Source: Candidatus Obscuribacterales bacterium (GTDB taxonomy: Bacteria; Cyanobacteriota; Vampirovibrionia; Obscuribacterales; Obscuribacteraceae). From it: DNA of 64,000 nucleotides. The stretch lies in assembly GCA_019744775.1 (NCBI GenBank), contig JAIETZ010000003.1, positions 124,001 through 188,000 on the forward strand, read 5' to 3'. The notes beneath the pieces are model-generated. The model made no database searches, was not told where the DNA came from, and saw nothing but the letters and a program-made list of their open reading frames with translations. Positions 28,652 through 41,993 of this stretch are shown here, piece after piece (position 1 is the first letter of the stretch; the number at the start of each line of letters is the position of its first letter). The translations under genes were made by a program, and so were the position numbers.

Positions 28652-30745
28652 TTAATACGTTTCGGCCATAAACGAACCGTAGTCAAAGCTTGCCGCGCTG
28701 CTTGTTAGAGTTACAATCACCGCTGGGCTGGTGTTCATGGCTTGAGTCGCGGATGGCAAGTTTGTTGTCTTTGTCGCAACAAGGTTACCGTTAATGTATG
28801 CCTTGATTTGAGTCGGATCAGAAGCATCAACAGTGAAGGTAATCTTTGTTCCTGCCGACATGGCTACTCCGGTATCGGTAAATGACCAAACTCCTCCGCC
28901 TGAGGATGTTCCGAATTTCCAATTGGTGTCACCAGCGCTGGTAGACCAACGGAATCCGCAGCCCCCGCCGGTGATAGTTGGAGCATCGCCCCCACTTATA
29001 CCACCTGGATTAAGATTGCATATCCAATACCTGACGTTGGTTGTGGTGTTTGGTGCGATTGAAACTTGCATCTTCGGCTTAAGTTCATATCGGGTTAGCG
29101 CATTGGTGGGCTGCTCGAAGCTGTTTTGACCTGATGTTGTTCCAGTGGTTAAACGATTAGTCGTTATACCATCGGTAACAGTCGCGTTTGCTATAGATCC
29201 GCTTGTGGTAACTGTAAAGCTTGTACCAATTGCGGTTCTGGTATTTACGCTGAAAGACGTTGGGTAGGAGTTAATAACGCGTTTCACTGGTGCAAGGTTT
29301 GGGTTTACTTCTCCGCCACCGGTCGATTGAATGCTAATGCCTGTAGTCGTCTTGGTAATGGTGACGTTGTTACCCGCAGTAATCGAATTGAGTATTGGCG
29401 TTGTGCCAGCCACTGCAAAAGTCCAAGTGGCGATTTTGCTTGTGCTTTGTTCTGTCATCCAGAGATTGCCGTCAGAGCCAATACATATTGATGTGACGCC
29501 GGTGCTTGAAGAGGGGAGCGCATACTCTTGAATCGAACCAGTGGGGGAAACTGATGCAATCTTATCTTTTGCATATTCGCAAAACCATATATTCCCATCA
29601 GGTCCCGCGCAGATTCCGTCTGGTGAGCTGCTGGCAGTAGGAATCGTGTATTCCGCAAATGTACCTGTAGTACTAACTTTTGCTACTTTGTTGACTCCTG
29701 ATTCTGTAAACCAAAGATTGCCATCGGACCCAGTACAGATTGAGAATGGGGAGGCTGAACCGGTTGGTACTGTGTATTCAGTGATGGTTCCTGACGTTGT
29801 AATTTTTGCGACCTTGTTTCCGGCGCTCTCCACAAACCAAAGATTACCCTCCGGACCAGCGCAAATTGAACGTGGTTGAGAACTTCCGGTCGGCACGGTG
29901 TACTCGGTGATTGTACCGGCGGTGGTGATTTTACCTATCTTGTTGCCGTTGAATTCGGTAAACCATAAATTTCCATCTGGTCCAGTGCAGATACCAGTTG
30001 GCTGCGACGATGCTGTGGGAACAGTGTATTCAGTAAAGCTACCGCCTGTTGTAACCTTGGCTATTTTGTTACCAGATTTTTCAGTGAACCAGATATTTCC
30101 GTCTGGACCTGTACAAATTCCCCAAGGAGCTGAGGAACCTGTCGGAATGGTGTATTCCGTAAAACCACCTATTGGGGTTATGGTTGCTATCTTGTTTTGA
30201 TTGTTTTCAGTAAACCAGATATTTCTATTTGGTCCTGTGCAGATACCTAGTGAATTGCTTGAACCTGTCGGTACTGAATATTCTGTTCCTGCGCTAGAAG
30301 CGGCAAGCGTGTGATCAAACGGCAACGGTTGTATCAATGCATTGGCTGGCATGATTACGTTAGGAACGCTTGCGGGAAGATTTCCTGCGGTGAGTGCATT
30401 GGTTGTGCTTCCACCGCCACCGGCACCATTGCTTGCAGAAGTAACCAGCCCTTGGGAGTTTACAGTGATGTCGGCGTTTGTATAGGAGCCAGGTGTAACA
30501 CCGGAACTTGGAAGGCTGACGTTAACTTTGATCTGCCCTGGTGAAGTGGTATCAATAGTGGTGCCGGTGCCATTGACTAGCTGGCGACTTGTTGGCACAT
30601 CTGGAGTTTCATCATTGACTGTGATTGGTGTATTGACCGGAGTTGGTGGGCATTCCGCATTTACCGCGGCACAAAATGCAAACATCGATAAAAGCGCAAT
30701 TGATGCTTTCCAATTATTGAAACGACGAGTTGATTTTTTAAACAT
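28652..30745 (-). CDS. Exported seven-bladed Vgb-like propeller protein with tail-fibre-like ends
   Basis: 697 residues. Signal peptide 1-30 (...FAFCAAVNA). The segment near 90-110 (ADITVNSQGLVTSASNG) resembles the linkers of phage tail fibre proteins. Seven repeats of about 42 residues follow (about 150-450), each TEYTVPTGSS-P-GICTGPDGNLWFTE---NKIAKITT-G. This is the virginiamycin B lyase/NHL-type blade and predicts a closed seven-bladed propeller. Then ITAGNNVTITKTTTGISI (tail-fibre like) and a beta-rich C-terminal domain of about 190 residues. The Vgb catalytic residues cannot be confirmed, so a binding role at the surface is as likely as lyase activity. AAGGAAA precedes the ATG. Divergent from the 30840 gene. 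Confidence 0.75.
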   Translation of the reverse strand: MFKKSTRRFNNWKASIALLSMFAFCAAVNAECPPTPVNTPITVNDETPDVPTSRQLVNGTGTTIDTTSPGQIKVNVSLPSSGVTPGSYTNADITVNSQGLVTSASNGAGGGGSTTNALTAGNLPASVPNVIMPANALIQPLPFDHTLAASSAGTEYSVPTGSSNSLGICTGPNRNIWFTENNQNKIATITPIGGFTEYTIPTGSSAPWGICTGPDGNIWFTEKSGNKIAKVTTGGSFTEYTVPTASSQPTGICTGPDGNLWFTEFNGNKIGKITTAGTITEYTVPTGSSQPRSICAGPEGNLWFVESAGNKVAKITTSGTITEYTVPTGSASPFSICTGSDGNLWFTESGVNKVAKVSTTGTFAEYTIPTASSSPDGICAGPDGNIWFCEYAKDKIASVSPTGSIQEYALPSSSTGVTSICIGSDGNLWMTEQSTSKIATWTFAVAGTTPILNSITAGNNVTITKTTTGISIQSTGGGEVNPNLAPVKRVINSYPTSFSVNTRTAIGTSFTVTTSGSIANATVTDGITTNRLTTGTTSGQNSFEQPTNALTRYELKPKMQVSIAPNTTTNVRYWICNLNPGGISGGDAPTITGGGCGFRWSTSAGDTNWKFGTSSGGGVWSFTDTGVAMSAGTKITFTVDASDPTQIKAYINGNLVATKTTNLPSATQAMNTSPAVIVTLTSSAASFDYGSFMAETY

Positions 30746-30839: not shown

Positions 30840-32177
30840 ATGACTGTCTTTCGGGCGAAGTTCTACTTACTATGTATTGCATTTTCTATGCTCTGGTTGG
30901 GAGTAAGTCAAGCAGCTGAAGCGCTGAATCCACCGGTGATTTCGCCGGGTACGGGTTCGTATACTAGTGCACGCGCGGCAAGCATAATTGCGCCATCTGG
31001 TACCATTTTTTATACAACAGATGGAAGTACACCTACTTCAAATTCAAATCAATATCAATCACCCGTTATAGTTAACAGCCCGACACAAATTAACGCGGTT
31101 GCATATCAAGACGGAATTTATAGCACTGTTGCTACTGCATACATAGATGTAAATTCGGCACTCGAACCAATATTGCAAATTGCACCGTTATTACGCCTTA
31201 CGACTGATTTCGGTGTTGTTACTGGAATTGGATCACCACAACCCGTGCAGCAGTGGATTGATTTATCAGGAAATGGTTACTCAGCTACATATAGTGAAGG
31301 TAATGAACCAATACTTTCTAATCCTTCATCAAGTATTGGCGCGATTAGCTTTAATGGCACATCTCAATTCTTGAATCTGCCGACAGGCTTTTCAAACTTC
31401 GCGTCCGGAATGAGCATTTTTCTTGTTGTGCGTCCAGACACACCAAGCACTGATGCCCGCTTCTTTGAGTTGGGCAACGGTCCTAGCAACAACAATATAT
31501 ATATGTCTCAACCCTCATCGACTGGTGCAGATCTGCATGTTTATAACGGCTCGACAGATAGCTCGGTAACATCATCAAGCGCTATCGCAATAGGACAATT
31601 TCAATTACTAGAAGGCATCTATAACGGAACTAGTACTGCGACAGTTTATACAAATGGAACGCAGGGTGCGCAGAATACTAGTATGCAAACGGCGGTGAAT
31701 ATTAGCCGTTTGCAAAATTACATTGGGCGCGCAAGTGGATTGGGTGGTTTTTACTCCGGCAAGATAGCTGAGATATTGATCTATCCCACTCAATTAACCT
31801 CAACTCAACGTTCAGCTGTCGAGTCTTACTATATTCAAAAATACCAAACACTTTCGGTCGTGCCGGTGACTCCAACAATTAGTGTGGCAGGCGGAACATT
31901 GAGCGGACCGACCGATGTTGCTGTTGCTTCTCAGCCGGGGACTATCACGTACATAACGACAGATGGATCAACACCGACAACATCATCGACAGTATATTCA
32001 GGGCCGCTTAGCGTCTACTACAGTCAGACAGTTAAGGCAATATCTGTGCGCGACGGAGTGCAGAGTAGCGTAGCTTCTGCCACATACGTGTTGGACTCAA
32101 GTCAATGGCCTGCGCCAAATCCTGGTGATACAACACCGCCCACAATTAATCTGCAACTACCAGCTCCTTCTATATAA
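30840..32177 (+). CDS. Exported protein with two chitobiase C-terminal-type domains flanking a LamG domain
   Basis: 445 residues. Signal peptide 1-25 (...LGVSQA). Residues about 30-100 and 345-415 are CHB_HEX_C (FN3-associated) domains, both with the telltale TDGSTPT (FYTTDGSTPTSNSNQY and YITTDGSTPTTSSTVY) and a KAISVRDGVQSS-type end. The middle (110-330) is a LamG/concanavalin-like jelly roll (WIDLSGNGYSATY...ISFNGTSQFLNLP...GFYSGKIAEILIY). A secreted or surface-bound carbohydrate-contact protein is likely. It stands 17 nt before the RHS gene and is probably cotranscribed with it. Confidence 0.8.
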   Translation: MTVFRAKFYLLCIAFSMLWLGVSQAAEALNPPVISPGTGSYTSARAASIIAPSGTIFYTTDGSTPTSNSNQYQSPVIVNSPTQINAVAYQDGIYSTVATAYIDVNSALEPILQIAPLLRLTTDFGVVTGIGSPQPVQQWIDLSGNGYSATYSEGNEPILSNPSSSIGAISFNGTSQFLNLPTGFSNFASGMSIFLVVRPDTPSTDARFFELGNGPSNNNIYMSQPSSTGADLHVYNGSTDSSVTSSSAIAIGQFQLLEGIYNGTSTATVYTNGTQGAQNTSMQTAVNISRLQNYIGRASGLGGFYSGKIAEILIYPTQLTSTQRSAVESYYIQKYQTLSVVPVTPTISVAGGTLSGPTDVAVASQPGTITYITTDGSTPTTSSTVYSGPLSVYYSQTVKAISVRDGVQSSVASATYVLDSSQWPAPNPGDTTPPTINLQLPAPSI

Positions 32178-32194
32178 CATTTGGAAACAAATAA

Positions 32195-35100
32195 ATGGCA
32201 AACAATAGAATCATCTGTCTTTTTCTGACAATGCTTACACTGGCGAATTCGCCGGTTGCATTTGCTGCTGACACAGCTACAGTGAAAAGGCTGAATGCAC
32301 CGCCTCCGCCGGCAATGCCTGCCTTCATTCGTCGTGGCACAAAAGCCATACAACTCCACAACAACAAAGTATTGAAGTTTTCCGCCAAGGCGACAGACAG
32401 CGAAATTTCTGCTGCTCGAATTTTTCCAGAGCCGCTTTGTCCAATGAGCACAAAGCCTGTGCCAGGCGAAAACCAAGCACTCACAAAAGCGCTTTCATCG
32501 TTTAAGTCTAAAGGTGATTGTGAAAATGTTAGCGATCTGAATAGCTTTCTTGCTAAATACCCACGTTCGCGTTGGCGTGCATCATTAGAGCTGAATTTGG
32601 GACAGTGTCGTTTTGAGTCCGGCTATCCTAGTGATGCCTTGCGTTATTGGAAATCAGCATGGACTATTGCCAAGCCAGAAAAAGGACAATTGCAAACAGC
32701 CGTAGCCAACGGGGCAATTTCCAGACTGCTGATGTTAGAAGCGCGACTCGGTAAGATGGAGGACATCAGCAGTCAACTAGCCGAAATCAAAAATCGTCCG
32801 ATGCGTGGCTCAGATGAAACTCGTGTACACAGCGCGCGCACCGGTCTGGAAACAATGAAGACGGATCCAGGCATAGCTTTCAAGTGTGGACCGTATGCAA
32901 TTAATAGTCTTTTGTTTGGCAAAGAGCATGTTAAATCCTGTCATCCAACTTTATATAAAGCCGCTTCGACTATTAAAGGAACGAATTTATGGCAATTGAA
33001 AGGTTGGGCAACTGAAGCAGGTTTGGATTATCAACCAGCTAAAAGAATGCCGAATTCGCCTATTGTCGTTCCAGCTGTTATGCACTGGAAGGTAGGCCAC
33101 TTTGCCGCGATAACTGAAGAAGCCGATGGACGATATCGACTTAAAGATCCAACTTTTGATACCGCTGGTGATAGATGGCTTAGCAAAAAGGCATTAGATG
33201 CTGAGAGCGACGGCTACTTTCTGGTGCCTGCAGGTAAATTGCCCAACGGCTGGCGAGCCTTAAGTCAGCAAGAAGCAGAAAATGTTTGGGGCAAGGGCTT
33301 TGCCAATGATAGCGACATGGATGCTATGACCCCGGATTGTCCTAGGACAAAACCTATGGATCAATGTGAAAAGGGAATGGCCCAAGCTGCATTCTGGACA
33401 ATGCAGACAACTACTAATATTTCCGACATTCCATTGACATATAGTCCTCCAGTTGGACCAGAGATGAACTTTCGTGTCAACTACAACTATCTAGAAAACA
33501 ATCAACCCGGCTCATTTGCCTTTACAACACTCGGAAAAAATTGGACGCTCAACTGGTTGTCCTATTTGACTCTGGATGCTTCTAAGAATGCCACCGTGCG
33601 GGTAAGTGGCGGCGGCTGCGAAGTATTTACCAATACCGGTACGGTGGGCAGTCCTGCCTACGCGAATCCAAATCTAACTTCGCAATCCACACTGGCAATT
33701 GTTGGCGGCAACTATCAGCGCCGTTTGCCTGATGGAACGATCGAGCTATTCAATGATACTGACGGTACAGGCCGGATCTTTATGACACAGGTGTTTGATC
33801 CGCAAGGCAACAGTATTTCAATTCAATATGACTCAAATTTTCGAATTTCAACAATTACGGATGCCATCGGACAGACATCCGCACTTACATATGCAACCAA
33901 CAGCTTTGGTTCACCTGGCTATTACAACCTTACTCAAATCAGTGACCCGTTTGGACGTACTGCCACATTTACATATGATTCAACGTACGCCCTTCTTCTA
34001 TCAATAACCGATCAAATAGGACTGGTATCTAAATTTACATATGATTCAGGTTCTAATTTTGTTACGGCAATGACGACGCCTTATGGAACGACATCCTTTT
34101 ACAGTTACACGCCAGCCCGACCGAGCAATAAATTACCTACAGGGTTGAGAATCAGTTTTCCAGATGGAACTTCGTGCGTCGTGGAAAACTGGAAAGAACA
34201 CATCCTTCAAACCTACTATTGGGATAGAGAAGCGATGTCTCGTTATCCCAATGATCCAGCAAATAGCGTTAATCCGGTCTATTCGAGTACCTGGCACTGC
34301 GCTGTCACCGAATGGCAACTATTAGCTCCGACAACTACCACTCAAAGCCCTGTCCCAAATTGGTACGAGCCTGCTCTTACACAGACAGGATCTGATACTA
34401 GGACTAGTTACTACTATGATGGCTCGACGGCTACCGGCGATGGCGATCACTATTGGACCGGACCAAGTAACAAACCCAACACAGTTACCCAGAACACTTC
34501 AGAGTGGGACTATACCTACAATACATACGGGCATATGACGCAGTCCATAGATCCCAAAGGGCGCAAATTTTCTTATACATATGCCGCGAATAACATTGAT
34601 CTGATTCAAGCAAAGCAAGTTAGAGGAAGTAACAACGATGTAATTGGTCAATGGAGTTACAATCAATTCTCTGCACCACCCACGGCAGCGCTTAGTCAGC
34701 ACCTTCCGCTTTCCTATATAAATGGATCTGGGCAGCAAACCATATACTCCTATAACGCATTTGGTCAGACTACACAGGTGTGTGATCCCCGAGGAAATGT
34801 GTGGAAATACACGTACGGCAGTATCCCAGGCAATTCTCTTCCTGCTTATCTGACCCAAATTGATGGACCACTGTCTGGTAATCAGGACGTCACGACATTT
34901 ACCTACGATGGTTACGGACGGGTCTATCAAGCAACGAATTCCCAGGGCTATACACTAACGTATAGCTATGACAATGCAGACAGAATTACCCAAATAACCT
35001 ACATGGACGGCACGTATGATCAAATTGTCTATGACAGACTTGATCAAATCCTGTTTACTGATCGACTAGGAAGAGTGACGCAAAATTCGTATGACAGCAT

Positions 35101-38100
35101 GCGTCAGCTTGCCTATACAGTTGATCCGCTTGGTCGTAAAACCAAATATACATGGTGTGGTTGCGGTGCTGTAATGTGTTTGACTGATCCAGCCGGGCAT
35201 ACTACGACCATGCATCACGATCTTGAGGGACGTCTCTCAAGCAAGGTCTACGCTAACGGTACAAAATACAGTTACACATACAATAACTTCGGACTTCTGC
35301 AAAACCGTACGGATGCTTTGAGTCAGGTCACGAACTATTCTTACAACAGTGACCTGTCACTTGCAGAGACCAGTTATTCGAAGGCAGTTAACCCCACGTC
35401 ATCGGTATATGTAACCTACGACCCGAATTATCCAAGAGTAACTAATAGACAAAATGGTAATTCCGGACTTTCTTATACCTACAACCCTTACCTAACGTCG
35501 ACCGGTGGAATTGCCACTCTTACACTTGGTGGCTCTCCAACAACTGGCGATGTTGTATCGGTAACGGTAGCGAACACTACTGCCACTAATGTGTCTCTCA
35601 CCGGGACTCCGACCACAGGCAATGTCGTCAACGTTCTGGTAATTAACAACAACCTTTCTGGTGGCAAGTACAATCTGCAATACACAGTCCAGGCTGGTGA
35701 TACAACTTTGTCCACATTGGCAAGCAGTATTGCCACTGCAATTAACGGTAACGGGACGCTTTCGGCAGCCAACATCTCCGCTAGTGCAAGTAGCTCCAAT
35801 GTGAAAATATCAGCCTATGGTGCGACTGGTGCATTTAGCATTCTGCCGAATGCCAATGGCACTGTCACCGAGACAGTTGGCGGCTCAATAAATGCCGGCG
35901 ATGTTGTAAGCGTGTCGGTTTTTGACGCGGGAATTCCATCAAATACATCTACTGGATTGCCTGCTGGACAGCGGACTTATTCGTACACGGTCGGCGGCGG
36001 TGATACGACAATTACAATAGCCAATCAGCTTTCAACTGCAATTAACGCTGATGCCACACTTTCCGGATTGGGTATTACTGCCTCATGGTCTGGCGGAAAT
36101 TCCTACTTCACCATTTCGTCCAATTCTGCTAATCAAACTCAATATGCCCAGTGGGTGAGCCCCGCTGGTAATGAAACAATTACTTTGACTGGTGGTCCGT
36201 CTGAGGCTGCTGCTACAGCCATATTGCCAAGCAGCTCAACGACAGTTAATTACACAGTGCAGTCAAGTGACACTACTTTGACGACGTTGGCGAATTCAAT
36301 TAAGACTGCAATCAATGCGAATTCTGCCTTGAGCAATGCAGGTGTAACTGCCACTGCCAATGCCAGCTATGGCGTGATTTATCTATCTGCACCCGCTCAA
36401 TTTGGTGTGCCCGCGGTAACAGTCGGCGTCAGTGGAGTGTCTCCAACTGAAACGATCACAACGGCAGTCTCTGGAAGTATTTATTTTTCCGGAACCCCCA
36501 CGACAGGTAACAGAATAAATGTAACTGTGTACAATGACACGCTAAGTGGTGATAGTGTCAATTTGCAATACACGGTGCAATCGGGTGATACAACCGCCGC
36601 ACTTTTAGCAAGCTCAGTCGCCAGCGCTATAAATGCAAACTCAACAATTTCCGCTGCCCAAATTGCTGCTACTGCAAGTGGGTCTATTGTCACTCTGACA
36701 GCCCCACCTGCCGCCGGCACGGTGGGTATTACCGCTAATGCCAACGGCACTGTGACTGAAACACTCACATTCTCAGGAACTTTGGGTGATACATTCAGCA
36801 TCACAGTTTATGACCCTGCCTTGCCTGGAGGACAGGCAACTGCATCTTATACGGCAAGTGTTAGTGATACCGCCACGGTTATAGCTGCGGCCTTGGCTTT
36901 TAGGCTCAATTCAAGTACGCATACTTCTGGTATCGTTGCCACCTCAAGTGGTGCGGTAGTTAGTATTAACTCCTCCACTAACAGTCGCACAGTAGTTCAA
37001 CAGAAGACAACTGGTACATCAACAATTGTTCAAGGTGGTGGTTCAACAAGTACGATATTGGCTGGAAGTGCATTTGGCGCCGGAAAATTGTCGTCAACCG
37101 CCAATACAGCAATCAACAATTCTATGACAACATATATCTACGATTCGCTGGGTCGTACCACTAATAGGTCAATAAATGGCCCAGCTAATTCCACAACATG
37201 GGAATATGATGCAATCAATCGTGTAACAAGCGAAGTAAACCCACTCGGCACTTTCAATTACGGATATTTGGATAACTCGCCAGGTTCATCAAAAGGTGAT
37301 CCTCGTTTAGCCTCGATAACCTATCCAAATTCACAAACGACCACTTTCAATTACCTACCCAACATCCTAGATCAACGCTTGCAACAGATAGTCAACGCAA
37401 ATCCAAGCGCCGTAATGGTCTCACAATTCAATTACGCTTATGACCCAGCAGGACAAATACGTCAGTGGCAGCAGCAACAAAATGCCGGCAATATCCACAC
37501 TGATTACGACTATGACCTAGCCGGACAACTCACCTCTGCACAATCCGACTCCGGCAGCATTTTCAAAGCATACATTGGTGGTGCAGTGCACGCTGGCGAT
37601 GTTGTGTCAGTAACTGCATATGACGCATCGCTTACTGGAACTGTACCTGTCGGACAGGAAACAGCCAGCTACACAGTAACCGGTGGCGATACGGCATCTA
37701 GCATTGCCACAGCTCTGGCCAGTTCAATCAACTCAACGATGAGCAACATAAGCGCTACGGCATCTTCGAGTGGCTCCATGGTAACCATAAGTACTTCACC
37801 AAACTACACCACAAGCTTTACTTGTGCAGTAACCGGGGCCGGAGCAACAGACACAATTGCATTAAGTCAAAGCAGTGCAATTTCTCCGCTGCACAAACAG
37901 AACTACTATAAATATGACTGCGCCAGCAATATTGTTGGAATGCAAGGAGACAGCACAGGCAGCTTCCCCTCCGGACTAACAACGACAGCAGCACAAGCAA
38001 CATACGACTGTGTAAATCAACTCACAGAAGTAAAGGCCGCAGGACCTGTTGCCTTCCAAGCCACAACTGTAAATCCCGTCAAATCGGCTGTGGTAAATCT

Positions 38101-39667
38101 AAGCCAGACGGCCACCATAAGTGGAAACATCCAAGCAGGAGACGTCCTTTATCTAAGCGTCCATGATAAACAGCTTCCGCAAGCAGAGATAATTGCCTAC
38201 ACAGTTGGTGGAAGTGACACGCTGACAACGATAGCATCTGCCATTACCACAGCAATAAACGCAAACATGACGCTGAGTACGCTCGGTGTAACAGCAACGT
38301 CTGTTGGAGCAGTAATTACAATATCGTCGACATCTAGCAGCAAGACAAGCTATTCACAAGCAGCTAGCCCGAATGCAAAAACTGTAATAGCCTTGAATGA
38401 CATACGAGGCGCATCAGAAAACATAAAGCCATCGACAAGCTTTGCTAGCAGTCCGAAGCTGGCTGTTGGTACAAACACTGCATCCGTGACAGCAGTCAGT
38501 GGAGGCGGAACTGCAACAACGGACACGTACCCAGTCACGATTGCCAACGGCACCTCAAAGTCATTTAGCTCAGACGCTAACGGTAATATGACGAATACGA
38601 CTACAGGTGCTTACCCACAGTATTCGTATGATGCCGAGAATCGAATAATTCAGATGAATTATGGCGGTACCAACAGTACAAATATTACATACGACGCTGC
38701 GGGACGCTATTCGCAAATTTCGGAAACATACAATGGGGCGGTATTGAGTATCAGCAACTTGGTGTGGTGTGGAGATGAGATTTGCGAGACACGCCTTTCC
38801 GATAACAGCAGTTGGCGTCAATATTTTTCACTGGGACAGATAAACTTCTCCGGTGGATCTAATACAAATTACTTTTATAACTTCGATCATGTAGAGTCTG
38901 TTCGAGAAATGACAGGCACGGATGGAGGGGTTGTTGATCAGTATAGTTATGATTCATGGGGAGTAGGTTCGAAGATTGTTGGAGTCGGACCTGATGCTGA
39001 TTTTGGCTATGCAAATATGTATCTCAATAGTCGTAGCGGACTATACTTGACGAAATATAGAGCTTTCAGTCCGAGTAAGGCTCGCTGGCTAAGTAGGGAT
39101 CCGATGGGAATTAGCGCAGGAACCAATGAGTTTATTTATGTGGGGAATCGCCCGATATCCTACAGAGATCCATCAGGTCTTGGTCCTATAAACGCTGCAA
39201 TATGGGGAACCGCTGGGGCTACTGGCGGATACTATGGTGGTGCCCTCACCGGGGGTGTCCTATCATTGCCAGGAGGAGGCGGACTTGCAATTCCTGGAGC
39301 AGTAGCAGGAGCGCTCCTCGGTGGAATGGCTGGCACTGCTGCAGGTTGGCTCATTCCGGATCCCAAAATTAGCGATATACCAGATCCCTTTTGTGCTGCT
39401 AAGCCGCCGAAAAATGCGTTAGATCCTAATGGACCAAAGGCTCCGGGGAACCCTGCTGATTATCCGGAGACTGGATTTGAGGAACCCAAGGGTGGACCTA
39501 ATTGGGTTCCGAACCCGAATGGACCAGGTAAAGGATTTGAGGCTGCTGACGGGAATGTTTGGGTTCCTAGTGGACCTAAGGGACACGGTGGTCCACATTG
39601 GGATGTTCAAGTTCCTGGGCGTGCCGGAACAGGCTTTAATGTGTATCCAGGGGGACGTGTCCGGTAA
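32195..39667 (+). CDS. Giant RHS/YD-repeat protein with N-terminal C39-like peptidase and C-terminal toxin-like domain
   Basis: 2490 residues. Sec signal peptide 1-25 (ending AFAAD). An N-terminal helical region precedes a papain-like domain with Cys231 (FKCGPYAINSL), His302 (HWKVGHFAAI) and Asp318 (LKDPTF), the peptidase C39-like triad. From about 420 the RHS shell begins, with YD repeats such as TFTYDGYGRVYQATNSQGY. The shell is interrupted three times by beta-rich repeats (about 1106-1625, 1790-1886 and 1969-2052). The RHS core ends with YLTKYRAFSPSKARWLSRDPMG near 2290 and PSGLGP. The 160-residue variable C-terminus has a Gly-rich hydrophobic segment and the end GGPHWDVQVPGRAG...NVYPGGR, which resembles polymorphic toxin type 37 as I remember it. 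Small genes that could give immunity follow directly. Likely a surface or secreted antagonistic toxin with self-cleavage potential. Confidence 0.88.
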   Translation: MANNRIICLFLTMLTLANSPVAFAADTATVKRLNAPPPPAMPAFIRRGTKAIQLHNNKVLKFSAKATDSEISAARIFPEPLCPMSTKPVPGENQALTKALSSFKSKGDCENVSDLNSFLAKYPRSRWRASLELNLGQCRFESGYPSDALRYWKSAWTIAKPEKGQLQTAVANGAISRLLMLEARLGKMEDISSQLAEIKNRPMRGSDETRVHSARTGLETMKTDPGIAFKCGPYAINSLLFGKEHVKSCHPTLYKAASTIKGTNLWQLKGWATEAGLDYQPAKRMPNSPIVVPAVMHWKVGHFAAITEEADGRYRLKDPTFDTAGDRWLSKKALDAESDGYFLVPAGKLPNGWRALSQQEAENVWGKGFANDSDMDAMTPDCPRTKPMDQCEKGMAQAAFWTMQTTTNISDIPLTYSPPVGPEMNFRVNYNYLENNQPGSFAFTTLGKNWTLNWLSYLTLDASKNATVRVSGGGCEVFTNTGTVGSPAYANPNLTSQSTLAIVGGNYQRRLPDGTIELFNDTDGTGRIFMTQVFDPQGNSISIQYDSNFRISTITDAIGQTSALTYATNSFGSPGYYNLTQISDPFGRTATFTYDSTYALLLSITDQIGLVSKFTYDSGSNFVTAMTTPYGTTSFYSYTPARPSNKLPTGLRISFPDGTSCVVENWKEHILQTYYWDREAMSRYPNDPANSVNPVYSSTWHCAVTEWQLLAPTTTTQSPVPNWYEPALTQTGSDTRTSYYYDGSTATGDGDHYWTGPSNKPNTVTQNTSEWDYTYNTYGHMTQSIDPKGRKFSYTYAANNIDLIQAKQVRGSNNDVIGQWSYNQFSAPPTAALSQHLPLSYINGSGQQTIYSYNAFGQTTQVCDPRGNVWKYTYGSIPGNSLPAYLTQIDGPLSGNQDVTTFTYDGYGRVYQATNSQGYTLTYSYDNADRITQITYMDGTYDQIVYDRLDQILFTDRLGRVTQNSYDSMRQLAYTVDPLGRKTKYTWCGCGAVMCLTDPAGHTTTMHHDLEGRLSSKVYANGTKYSYTYNNFGLLQNRTDALSQVTNYSYNSDLSLAETSYSKAVNPTSSVYVTYDPNYPRVTNRQNGNSGLSYTYNPYLTSTGGIATLTLGGSPTTGDVVSVTVANTTATNVSLTGTPTTGNVVNVLVINNNLSGGKYNLQYTVQAGDTTLSTLASSIATAINGNGTLSAANISASASSSNVKISAYGATGAFSILPNANGTVTETVGGSINAGDVVSVSVFDAGIPSNTSTGLPAGQRTYSYTVGGGDTTITIANQLSTAINADATLSGLGITASWSGGNSYFTISSNSANQTQYAQWVSPAGNETITLTGGPSEAAATAILPSSSTTVNYTVQSSDTTLTTLANSIKTAINANSALSNAGVTATANASYGVIYLSAPAQFGVPAVTVGVSGVSPTETITTAVSGSIYFSGTPTTGNRINVTVYNDTLSGDSVNLQYTVQSGDTTAALLASSVASAINANSTISAAQIAATASGSIVTLTAPPAAGTVGITANANGTVTETLTFSGTLGDTFSITVYDPALPGGQATASYTASVSDTATVIAAALAFRLNSSTHTSGIVATSSGAVVSINSSTNSRTVVQQKTTGTSTIVQGGGSTSTILAGSAFGAGKLSSTANTAINNSMTTYIYDSLGRTTNRSINGPANSTTWEYDAINRVTSEVNPLGTFNYGYLDNSPGSSKGDPRLASITYPNSQTTTFNYLPNILDQRLQQIVNANPSAVMVSQFNYAYDPAGQIRQWQQQQNAGNIHTDYDYDLAGQLTSAQSDSGSIFKAYIGGAVHAGDVVSVTAYDASLTGTVPVGQETASYTVTGGDTASSIATALASSINSTMSNISATASSSGSMVTISTSPNYTTSFTCAVTGAGATDTIALSQSSAISPLHKQNYYKYDCASNIVGMQGDSTGSFPSGLTTTAAQATYDCVNQLTEVKAAGPVAFQATTVNPVKSAVVNLSQTATISGNIQAGDVLYLSVHDKQLPQAEIIAYTVGGSDTLTTIASAITTAINANMTLSTLGVTATSVGAVITISSTSSSKTSYSQAASPNAKTVIALNDIRGASENIKPSTSFASSPKLAVGTNTASVTAVSGGGTATTDTYPVTIANGTSKSFSSDANGNMTNTTTGAYPQYSYDAENRIIQMNYGGTNSTNITYDAAGRYSQISETYNGAVLSISNLVWCGDEICETRLSDNSSWRQYFSLGQINFSGGSNTNYFYNFDHVESVREMTGTDGGVVDQYSYDSWGVGSKIVGVGPDADFGYANMYLNSRSGLYLTKYRAFSPSKARWLSRDPMGISAGTNEFIYVGNRPISYRDPSGLGPINAAIWGTAGATGGYYGGALTGGVLSLPGGGGLAIPGAVAGALLGGMAGTAAGWLIPDPKISDIPDPFCAAKPPKNALDPNGPKAPGNPADYPETGFEEPKGGPNWVPNPNGPGKGFEAADGNVWVPSGPKGHGGPHWDVQVPGRAGTGFNVYPGGRVR
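35510..38350 (+). repeat. Tandem and scattered ~100-residue beta repeats inside the RHS gene
   Basis: Coding repeats. Each unit follows GDVVSVTV--------YTVQ-GDTT---LA-SI--AINAN-TLS---I-ATASG--V-ISA. Four to five stand in tandem at 35510-37070, and single units recur at about 37560-37850 and 38100-38350. These interrupt the YD repeat array. They are diverged at the base level, so they are old duplications rather than recent slippage. Confidence 0.75.
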
Positions 39668-39728: not shown

Positions 39729-40097
39729 ATGGTTAATGCGCAAGTACGACTCATTTTTGTCGGCGATTTGATAGATCCGGACTACATTACACAAACGTTG
39801 GGGATCACTCCAACAAAAGTAATGAAGGAAGGCGAGAAATTTGGGTCATGGAAATACGACGGACTGGCTATTAGTGATGATGAGGCTTCATCCGGCTCCT
39901 ATGAAGCTTGGCGTTTGCTACTTCTTAAAAACAGTGAGCCATTAATCAAACTAAAAGAACTGGGTTACGATGGTTATATAGAGATTGAATGGCAGACCGA
40001 TGGTCATCCAACGAATGACAGCTTATACCTGACTGGTGAATTCGTACAGGAGATCGGGAGGGTCGGACTTGGATTGAGCGTTTGGTTCAAGAGATAA
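39729..40097 (+). CDS. DUF4279-type protein, immunity candidate for the RHS toxin
   Basis: 122 residues, cytoplasmic. The start RLIFVGDLIDPDYITQTLGITPTKVMKEGEKF matches the DUF4279 pattern (dp--IT--LGI-Pt-----Ge). SWKYDGLAI and the beta-rich end (GYIEIEWQTDGHPTNDSLYLTGEF) also fit. DUF4279 proteins are common next to polymorphic toxin genes. It begins 61 nt after the RHS stop with GGAG 10 nt upstream. Immunity function is inferred from position only. Confidence 0.7.
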   Translation: MVNAQVRLIFVGDLIDPDYITQTLGITPTKVMKEGEKFGSWKYDGLAISDDEASSGSYEAWRLLLLKNSEPLIKLKELGYDGYIEIEWQTDGHPTNDSLYLTGEFVQEIGRVGLGLSVWFKR

Positions 40098-41135: not shown

Positions 41136-41993
41136 ATGCTGGAAGAATTTTCTCAATCATCCATTCGTTCATTGATACAGTCCAATGAGGAAGCTCAGCT
41201 AACAGCGCAACCGAAGATCAGAGATATTGAACTGTTTCTTGCTGTCACTAGTGAAGCTAACGGAATTGCCTGTTCTGTACTTAGTTCTCTTGGTCTAACA
41301 AAAAATGAAACTCGTTCTTGTTGTGCGGAACTGTTTCCTCAAGAAACAAAATCAACGGATAGAGACAGAGAATATGATAGGAATTTTTGGCATGCCCTCG
41401 AGCGTGCTCGGCATACACAAGTGCTATTAGACCATCGCCTGCTAACTACAGGACATCTATTGATTGGTTCGCTTGATTGCGTCAACATTTGCAAGGTGGT
41501 TGAAAAGCTGGGACTAGATCGTGCAACCATCTCAGAACAAGTCAAAGTTGCATTTAGCGATCCAGATAATGTAGCCAGAGAGGAGAGAAACCCAGACTCA
41601 GAGTTGCTTTCTTCGCTCTCGAAACGTTTGGGCAGTAAGGGTACTATTCTTCTAACTATTGCTGAAAGTGAGGCTCGAAAGTATGGACACTTTTACATAG
41701 ATTCAGGGCACCTTTTATTGGCCTGTTTTTTAAGCACAGTGAGAATGCCACCAGAGCAATGTAGGAGTCAGTTAGTAGACCCCGTACGGAAGGAACTCCT
41801 ACGAATGGCTGGCACGGGTAGTGGTTGCGAACTTGCTTTGCATCCACTAATGATCACTATTCTGGAAGACGCAATATCTCTAGCCAAGTCGGCGGACAAA
41901 GAAGTGGATGCCGAGTTTGTTTTTCAAGCAATCAAAGGAAATGAAAAAGGAATTGCTTTACGAGCAATGGAGAATCTTGGTATTGAATTGTAA
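41136..41993 (+). CDS. Stand-alone Clp N-terminal-domain protein
   Basis: 285 residues, no ATPase. Helical repeats match the Clp_N fold twice over. One pair is near 10-135 (FWHALERARHTQVLLDHRLLTTGHLLIGSLD with preceding half). A second is near 155-285 (LTIAESEARKYGHFYIDSGHLLLACF and LEDAISLAKSADKEVDAEFVFQAIKGNEKGIALRAMENLGI). Such proteins can act as adaptor-like or substrate-binding modules of ClpC-type unfoldases. GGAGAGATAAGGG lies upstream of the ATG. Its presence inside the RHS cargo region is unusual. Confidence 0.7.
   Translation: MLEEFSQSSIRSLIQSNEEAQLTAQPKIRDIELFLAVTSEANGIACSVLSSLGLTKNETRSCCAELFPQETKSTDRDREYDRNFWHALERARHTQVLLDHRLLTTGHLLIGSLDCVNICKVVEKLGLDRATISEQVKVAFSDPDNVAREERNPDSELLSSLSKRLGSKGTILLTIAESEARKYGHFYIDSGHLLLACFLSTVRMPPEQCRSQLVDPVRKELLRMAGTGSGCELALHPLMITILEDAISLAKSADKEVDAEFVFQAIKGNEKGIALRAMENLGIEL

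What the first reader, a model, noticed from the sequence alone, without database searches (positions are those of the whole stretch)
32195..39667. RHS protein combining an N-terminal C39-like peptidase, an internal beta-repeat insertion and a toxin end
A Sec signal peptide, a papain-like triad (C231, H302, D318), then YD repeats interrupted three times by GDVVSVTV/AINAN repeats, then the RHS core and a 160-residue toxin-like end. The C39-like domain is not followed by a transporter, so it may process the RHS shell or a neighbour after export. Insertion of flagellar-hook/adhesin-like beta repeats within the YD array is unusual and would bulge out of the RHS cocoon, perhaps as a surface-display arm.
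Basis: partly seen in the sequence, partly recalled or inferred. Interest (0 to 1): 0.7.

Follow-up and report, generated by a model that had tools for sequence, protein, structure and literature searches.

The report
RHS toxin with protease and arms
This gene of an uncultured relative of cyanobacteria encodes a very large exported toxin: a built-in C39-type protease domain at the front, a protein shell carrying extra domains that resemble part of phage tails, and an exchangeable poison at the tip; it belongs to a family, not described in the papers found, whose genes always sit behind one for a surface-binding partner protein.

Summary
ORF 32195-39667 (2490 aa, an Obscuribacterales-type genome) has a signal peptide, a TPR domain, a C39-fold peptidase domain with C231/H302/D318, YD repeats interrupted by three insertions (8 domains, 6+1+1), an Rhs core with the aspartyl self-cleavage dyad, and a C-terminal Ntox37 toxin domain followed by a DUF4279-like putative immunity gene. 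The same TPR-C39 N-terminus occurs only in this family and one other family of the order; the triad is invariant in 25/25. Shells are alike, tails differ (Ntox37, Ntox44, unknown): a polymorphic-toxin family. (1) The repeats are not hook/adhesin-like: sequence, PHROG and fold searches all point to a domain of contractile-phage tail sheaths, and 3-12 copies sit at shared YD sites in every relative long enough to tell. (2) Every C39-RHS gene examined lies directly behind a Fn3-assoc/laminin-G adhesin gene whose C-terminal tail is conserved. The oxyanion Gln of classical C39 is an invariant Pro, so activity is unproven. Likely mechanism: Sec export, partner-assisted display, C39 cutting near the N-terminus, Asp-dyad release of the toxin. 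New variant of a known kind.

The parts
30840..32177 (+). Partner gene: exported Fn3_assoc / CHB_HEX_C + Laminin_G_3 protein, 445 aa, ending 17 nt before the RHS gene; conserved C-terminal tail 'WPAP...INLQLP'
   Evidence: Pfam; homologue directly upstream of every fetched C39-RHS locus; tail alignment
32195..39667 (+). C39-RHS polymorphic toxin, 2490 aa
32195..32266 (+). Sec signal peptide, residues 1-24 (A-F-A | A-D)
   Evidence: read directly; relatives have a hydrophobic N-terminus too
32468..32863 (+). TPR domain, residues ~92-223
   Evidence: AlphaFold2 helices, pLDDT >90; TPR matches in PDB; CpoB hit
32867..33229 (+). C39-type peptidase domain, residues ~225-345
   Evidence: Pfam PF03412 E 2e-7; ComA/PCAT1 fold, Z 13.1, rmsd 2.4-2.9 over 115-119 residues
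32885..32887 (+). Cys231, putative nucleophile; the -6 position is Pro225, not Gln
   Evidence: invariant 25/25; aligned with the Cys of 6mpz and ComA
33098..33100 (+). His302
   Evidence: invariant 25/25; aligned with the His of 6mpz and ComA
33146..33148 (+). Asp318
   Evidence: invariant 25/25; aligned with the Asp of 6mpz and ComA
33290..33379 (+). Linker between C39 domain and RHS shell, residues 366-395, hypervariable in length between conserved GKG and GM; candidate cleavage region (inference)
33380..35503 (+). First YD/RHS stretch, residues 396-1103
   Evidence: Pfam RHS_repeat, 11 stretches in the protein
35504..37060 (+). Insertion 1: six (one partial) tail-sheath-like domains, residues ~1104-1622
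   Evidence: shared site C
37061..37561 (+). YD/RHS stretch, residues 1623-1789
37562..37873 (+). Insertion 2: one domain, residues ~1790-1893
37874..38089 (+). YD/RHS stretch, residues 1894-1965
   Evidence: between HMM-defined insertions
38090..38464 (+). Insertion 3: one domain plus linker, residues ~1966-2090
   Evidence: HMM hit 1973-2065; local pLDDT mostly 81-91, strands-helix-strands
38948..39181 (+). Rhs-associated core, residues 2252-2329
   Evidence: TIGR03696 E 9.9e-15
39098..39169 (+). Aspartyl self-cleavage dyad D2302...D2325 (DPMG...DPSGL)
   Evidence: equivalent to RhsA D1324/D1346 and Tse15 D1369/D1391
39182..39424 (+). Gly/Ala-rich pre-toxin stretch, residues 2330-2410
   Evidence: read directly
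39437..39655 (+). Ntox37 toxin domain, residues 2415-2487, with HWD
   Evidence: Pfam PF15535 E 1.5e-10; 65% identical to a Nocardia Ntox37-like domain
39729..40097 (+). Putative immunity gene, DUF4279-like, 122 aa, 61 nt behind the toxin gene
   Evidence: DUF4279 proposed as immunity of a Salmonella Rhs toxin

Best explanation
It is a Sec-exported polymorphic RHS toxin of an Obscuribacterales-type family, encoded as a two-gene module plus an immunity gene. An exported adhesin-like partner (Fn3-assoc/laminin-G) and the toxin are made together. The YD repeats form a shell enclosing the C-terminal Ntox37 toxin, which is cut loose inside it by the Asp dyad D2302/D2325, as in RhsA and Tse15. Tail-sheath-like domains inserted between YD strands add outward or stacking modules to the shell. 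The N-terminal TPR-C39 unit is not the toxin; most likely it is a processing peptidase acting in cis (in the variable linker behind it) or on the partner, after export, to free the shell from its N-terminal anchor, with the TPR domain (perhaps binding the conserved tail of the partner) choosing the substrate. The downstream DUF4279-like protein protects the producer. Shown here: architecture, conservation, gene pairing, exchange of tails. Inferred: export, encapsulation, cleavage, substrate, toxicity and immunity.
For: Family: the TPR-C39 N-terminus is found in 20 of 99 related genomes, all in the same family or one other family of its order. The triad is invariant in 25/25 aligned sequences at 37-55% identity to the window protein; with 27 invariant columns of 297, three chosen columns all being invariant has a chance of ~7e-4. 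C39 fold with pLDDT 93.9 and Z 13.1 to ComA and PCAT1. Shell: RHS repeats and Rhs core, Foldseek matches to RhsA, Tse15, Tc and teneurin shells. Asp dyad, spacing 21-24, in most relatives whose core could be read. Polymorphism: unrelated tails on alike shells; Ntox44 in L038; a same-genus gene fragment 65% identical with another tail; paralogues in G029 94% and 85% identical in DNA over 6.8 kb with different tails; orphan 3' cassettes 88-90% identical over 2.2-2.4 kb. Ntox37 in 1 of 99 relatives only. Immunity: a protein in G024 fuses a DUF4279-like domain with a domain homologous to the ORF behind Nocardia Ntox37. Partner: at every fetched C39-RHS locus.
Against: The Gln at -6 of the Cys (present in three other C39-type proteins of related genomes) is an invariant Pro, so activity is uncertain. 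No conserved double-glycine motif is visible in the alignment of the regions around the C39 domain. The toxin is expected to be freed by the Asp dyad, so the C39 domain is not needed for that. The immunity hit is below the Pfam cut-off (24.6 against 25). How a ~260-kDa protein crosses the outer membrane is unexplained. Encapsulation was not modelled: the AlphaFold2 model of the shell region is poor.
Confidence: 0.6

Rival explanations
1. The C39 domain is a catalytically dead (or nearly dead) peptide-binding module that anchors the toxin or holds the partner's tail, like the inactive transglutaminase domains found after the signal peptide of other RHS toxins.
For: The classical oxyanion Gln is an invariant Pro in 25/25. 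Zhang et al. 2012 describe inactive transglutaminases in just this position. A sister RHS family in related genomes has a Transglut_core N-terminus whose Cys position reads A/S.
Against: C, H and D are all invariant in 25/25 here, unlike the Cys in the sister family; a pure binding domain would be expected to lose them.
Confidence: 0.25
2. The C39 domain is a second effector: a peptidase that attacks the target cell, with the RHS tip a second toxin.
For: Zhang et al. list Tox-PL-C39 as a toxin domain; VIA-align rows include papain-like CDI toxins 8ssm and 9l5u at Z 11.8-12.3.
Against: It sits at the N-terminus behind a signal peptide and TPR domain and is conserved at all loci, while tails vary; toxin domains of these systems are usually C-terminal and exchanged.
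Confidence: 0.08
3. Not a competition toxin but a surface/adhesion protein: RHS shell, sheath-like domains and laminin-G partner form a fibre or matrix, and the tails are degenerate.
For: Several tails are short and Cys-rich and match nothing; the partner has lectin-like domains; the inserted arrays are long.
Against: Ntox37 and Ntox44 above cut-off, Asp dyad conserved, tails exchanged between near-identical shells, immunity candidate.
Confidence: 0.1

Closest known systems
Polymorphic toxin systems with RHS repeats exported by Sec (Zhang et al. 2012, PMC3482391)
   Same: Signal peptide, N-terminal papain-fold domain, RHS array, exchangeable C-terminal toxin, neighbouring immunity gene; lectin-type domains embedded among RHS repeats and papain-like Tox-PL1 inside RHS arrays are reported there
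   Different: A C39 domain with intact triad at the N-terminus, behind a TPR domain; arrays of tail-sheath-like domains at shared YD sites; a constant adhesin partner gene
T6SS Rhs effectors RhsA (PMC8765631) and Tse15 (PMC11461821)
   Same: YD shell, Rhs core, Asp dyad with near-identical spacing, C-terminal toxin; in both the N-terminal part is cut off too
   Different: No PAAR/T6SS N-terminus, but a signal peptide; a C39 domain where RhsA has an unidentified activity and Tse15 a Glu nucleophile
C39 peptidase domains of PCAT/ComA transporters
   Same: Fold (Z 13.1, rmsd 2.4-2.9 over 115-119 residues) and C-H-D triad
   Different: No transporter, no oxyanion Gln, exported, fused to a toxin
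Contractile phage tail sheath (9cb9; PHROG 165)
   Same: One ~95-residue domain: sequence profile E 2.6e-5, 32 of 39 domains match PHROG 165, fold match rmsd 3.5 over 105-108 columns
   Different: No other sheath domain; here in tandem inside an RHS toxin

Membership tests
RHS/YD polymorphic toxin | YD/RHS repeats and Rhs-associated core | tested here: met
RHS/YD polymorphic toxin | Asp dyad at the core/toxin junction (DPxG...DPxGL) | tested here: met
   D2302/D2325; motif
RHS/YD polymorphic toxin | Different toxin tails on alike shells | tested here: met
RHS/YD polymorphic toxin | Immunity gene next to the toxin | tested here: inconclusive
   DUF4279-like ORF just below the Pfam cut-off; fusion evidence
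Ntox37 | Match above the curated cut-off, Hx[DH] motif | tested here: met
   41.9 against 27.8 bits; HWD at 2468-2470; family features
Peptidase family C39 (bacteriocin-processing) | Pfam model and fold | tested here: met
   31.4 against 22 bits when scanned alone
Peptidase family C39 (bacteriocin-processing) | Cys-His-Asp triad | tested here: met
Peptidase family C39 (bacteriocin-processing) | Oxyanion Gln six residues before Cys | tested here: not met
   Pro in 25/25; Gln present in three other C39-type proteins of related genomes
Peptidase family C39 (bacteriocin-processing) | Fused to an ABC transporter | tested here: not met
Peptidase family C39 (bacteriocin-processing) | Cuts after double glycine | not testable with these tools
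   needs an assay
T6SS Rhs effector | PAAR/VgrG N-terminus | tested here: not met
   only TPR and C39 found there
Tc toxin BC component | SpvB and beta-propeller domains | tested here: not met
   Pfam scans of the whole protein and pieces
Contractile tail sheath protein | Whole sheath architecture | tested here: not met
   only one domain resembles it
LysM | Full-length LysM match | tested here: not met
   only positions 1-20 of 43 match

The most novel reading that the evidence does not exclude
A clade-specific exported toxin machine: the TPR-C39 unit is an active, non-classical (oxyanion-Gln-less) cysteine peptidase that recognises the conserved C-terminal tail of the adhesin partner, coupling surface anchoring or target contact to release of the RHS shell, while arrays of domains shared with phage tail sheaths form stacking or reaching arms on the cocoon.
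Probability: 0.2. Interest if true: 0.75.

Novelty: new variant of a known kind. Interest (0 to 1): 0.5.

Why it matters
How Sec-exported RHS toxins are displayed and set free is open, and what makes the N-terminal cut was left unknown for RhsA (PMC8765631). A conserved N-terminal peptidase domain with a named triad and a fixed partner gene makes this directly testable. Tail-sheath-like domains inside an RHS cocoon, at shared sites and in varying number, are not described in the papers found here, and the organisms are little-studied relatives of cyanobacteria.

Tried and rejected
LysM reading of the repeats: only the first 16-20 of 43 model positions match, the 'YTV..GDT..IA' motif; taken as convergence. 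Spread of the inserted domain as a mobile element through this genome: it occurs only in this ORF, in 29 of 50 genomes of the family and in 1 of 244 drawn from the phylum, the window's own. No match of insertion 1 in plasmids or phages by tblastn. The fold of shell plus insertions is too poor to place the domains relative to the shell; no claim on 'bulging out' is made from it. DUF4279-like protein: no match in plasmids; its homologue in G024 lies beside a transposase-like ORF, not a toxin. Literature searches for Obscuribacter + RHS, and for RHS + peptidase C39 + polymorphic toxin, returned nothing.

Full report
What is there. The ORF 32195-39667 encodes 2490 aa. The window is G000:C3:124001-188000 of a 4.1-Mb genome; two relatives found in a named collection are Candidatus Obscuribacterales / Melainabacteria, so the host is very probably of that group. 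Pfam and NCBIfam find RHS repeats (E 2e-32), the Rhs-associated core (2252-2329) and Ntox37 (2415-2487, E 1.5e-10). Scanned alone, residues ~231-345 match Peptidase_C39 at E 2e-7.

N-terminal unit. A search of 99 related genomes with residues 86-418 found the unit in 20, all in the same family or one other family of the order. In the alignment of 25 sequences C231, H302 and D318 are invariant. AlphaFold2 on residues 66-362 gives pLDDT 93.9: a TPR domain followed by a C39 fold, best matches ComA and PCAT1 (Z 13.1; Foldseek 6mpz E 1.4e-4). A profile alignment puts C, H and D on those of 6mpz and ComA. Position -6 of the Cys is Pro in 25/25; two C39 transporters and a small exported C39-type protein of related genomes have Gln there. 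So the fold and triad are C39-like, the oxyanion residue is not, and activity is open. That Gln forms the oxyanion hole in classical C39 is my own knowledge of the family, not a result here.

Inserted domains. An HMM built from the window's own repeats finds 176 domains, 3-12 in every relative whose ORF is over 1000 aa. Mapping each flank separately shows shared sites in the YD array (window residues ~770, ~876, ~1102, ~1790 or ~1922, ~1970), with occupancy and copy number varying; the window lacks the first two sites and has six domains at the third. The profile matches a tail sheath protein in the PDB (9cb9 residues 93-166, E 2.6e-5); 32 of 39 domains match PHROG 165, tail sheath (best 1.4e-5); the predicted model matches phage sheath and structural proteins over 105-108 columns at rmsd 3.5. 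Each line is weak; the three agree. The composition is Thr/Ser/Ala/Gly-rich, so some caution stays. In the local model (pLDDT mostly 81-91 for the third insertion) the order is strands, helix, strands.

Shell and tip. Foldseek of the partial shell model finds RhsA, RhsP, Tse15, Tc toxins and teneurins. D2302 and D2325, 23 apart, match the dyad of RhsA (D1324/D1346) and Tse15 (D1369/D1391), which cuts the toxin loose. Tails differ among relatives, with Ntox44 in one. In G029 three paralogues share the gene body at 94% and 85% DNA identity but not the tail; a downstream cassette in G038 (L071) and one in G029 (L070) repeat the 3' part at 88-90% identity with other tails. This is the pattern of RHS toxin exchange. 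Ntox37 occurs in no other of 99 relatives, but the window's domain is 65% identical to the end of a Nocardia farcinica protein.

Neighbours. Behind the toxin lies a 122-aa DUF4279-like gene (Pfam E 3.2e-5, 24.6 bits against a cut-off of 25). In G024 a 229-aa protein joins a homologue of it to a domain homologous to the ORF behind the Nocardia Ntox37 toxin. DUF4279 has been proposed as immunity of a Salmonella Rhs-Ntox33 toxin (PMC13304343). In front lies a Fn3_assoc/CHB_HEX/Laminin_G_3 protein. A homologue precedes every one of the 25 fetched C39-RHS loci, mostly within 75 nt where the ORFs are whole; one locus (L031, a broken gene) shows only a piece of it. A profile of its C-terminal 95 residues finds in 50 genomes, at full strength, the C39-RHS loci and one contig end in G011 where a similar N-terminus begins. 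Its last residues (PAP...L.INLQLP) are conserved.

Mechanism. Shown: architecture, conservation, pairing, exchange of tails. Inferred from known families: Sec export, encapsulation, Asp-dyad release, toxicity, immunity. Inferred from anatomy only: C39 cutting of the variable linker 366-395 or of the partner, TPR recognition of the partner's tail, arms on the shell. In related genomes a sister RHS family has a transglutaminase-like N-terminus without its Cys, as described for other RHS toxins in PMC3482391; the contrast with the invariant triad here favours an active peptidase.

Known or new. The kind (RHS polymorphic toxin with N-terminal papain-fold domain, domains embedded in the array) is known (PMC3482391). 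The combination, the sheath-like inserts and the fixed adhesin partner are not in the papers found. Hence a new variant of a known kind.

Noticed in passing
window 28652-30745 (-): 697-aa protein with a Vgb_lyase (virginiamycin B lyase family) match, E 2.7e-105, far below the NCBIfam cut-offs for the true resistance enzymes; probably an ordinary propeller protein.
   Followed up: no
window 41136-41993 (+): Stand-alone protein with two stretches like the Clp N-terminal domain and no ATPase found.
   Followed up: no
L064-L069: Sister RHS proteins (2143-2207 aa) with a Transglut_core N-terminus (scanned in two) whose Cys position reads A/S, and one to three sheath-like domains.
   Followed up: partly
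L072:6822-9374 (+): ORF that starts like a DUF1016-type protein (by eye) and runs into three sheath-like domains and a Cys-rich tail, as if a rearrangement had joined them.
   Followed up: no
L031 (G007:C6) and L051 (G016:C14): C39-RHS genes broken by stop codons: the N-terminal ORF ends early (145 and 430 aa) and a long RHS ORF follows.
   Followed up: no
L030, L035, L036, L052: The adhesin partner varies from one to many tandem Fn3/laminin-G units (ORFs up to 2202 aa).
   Followed up: no
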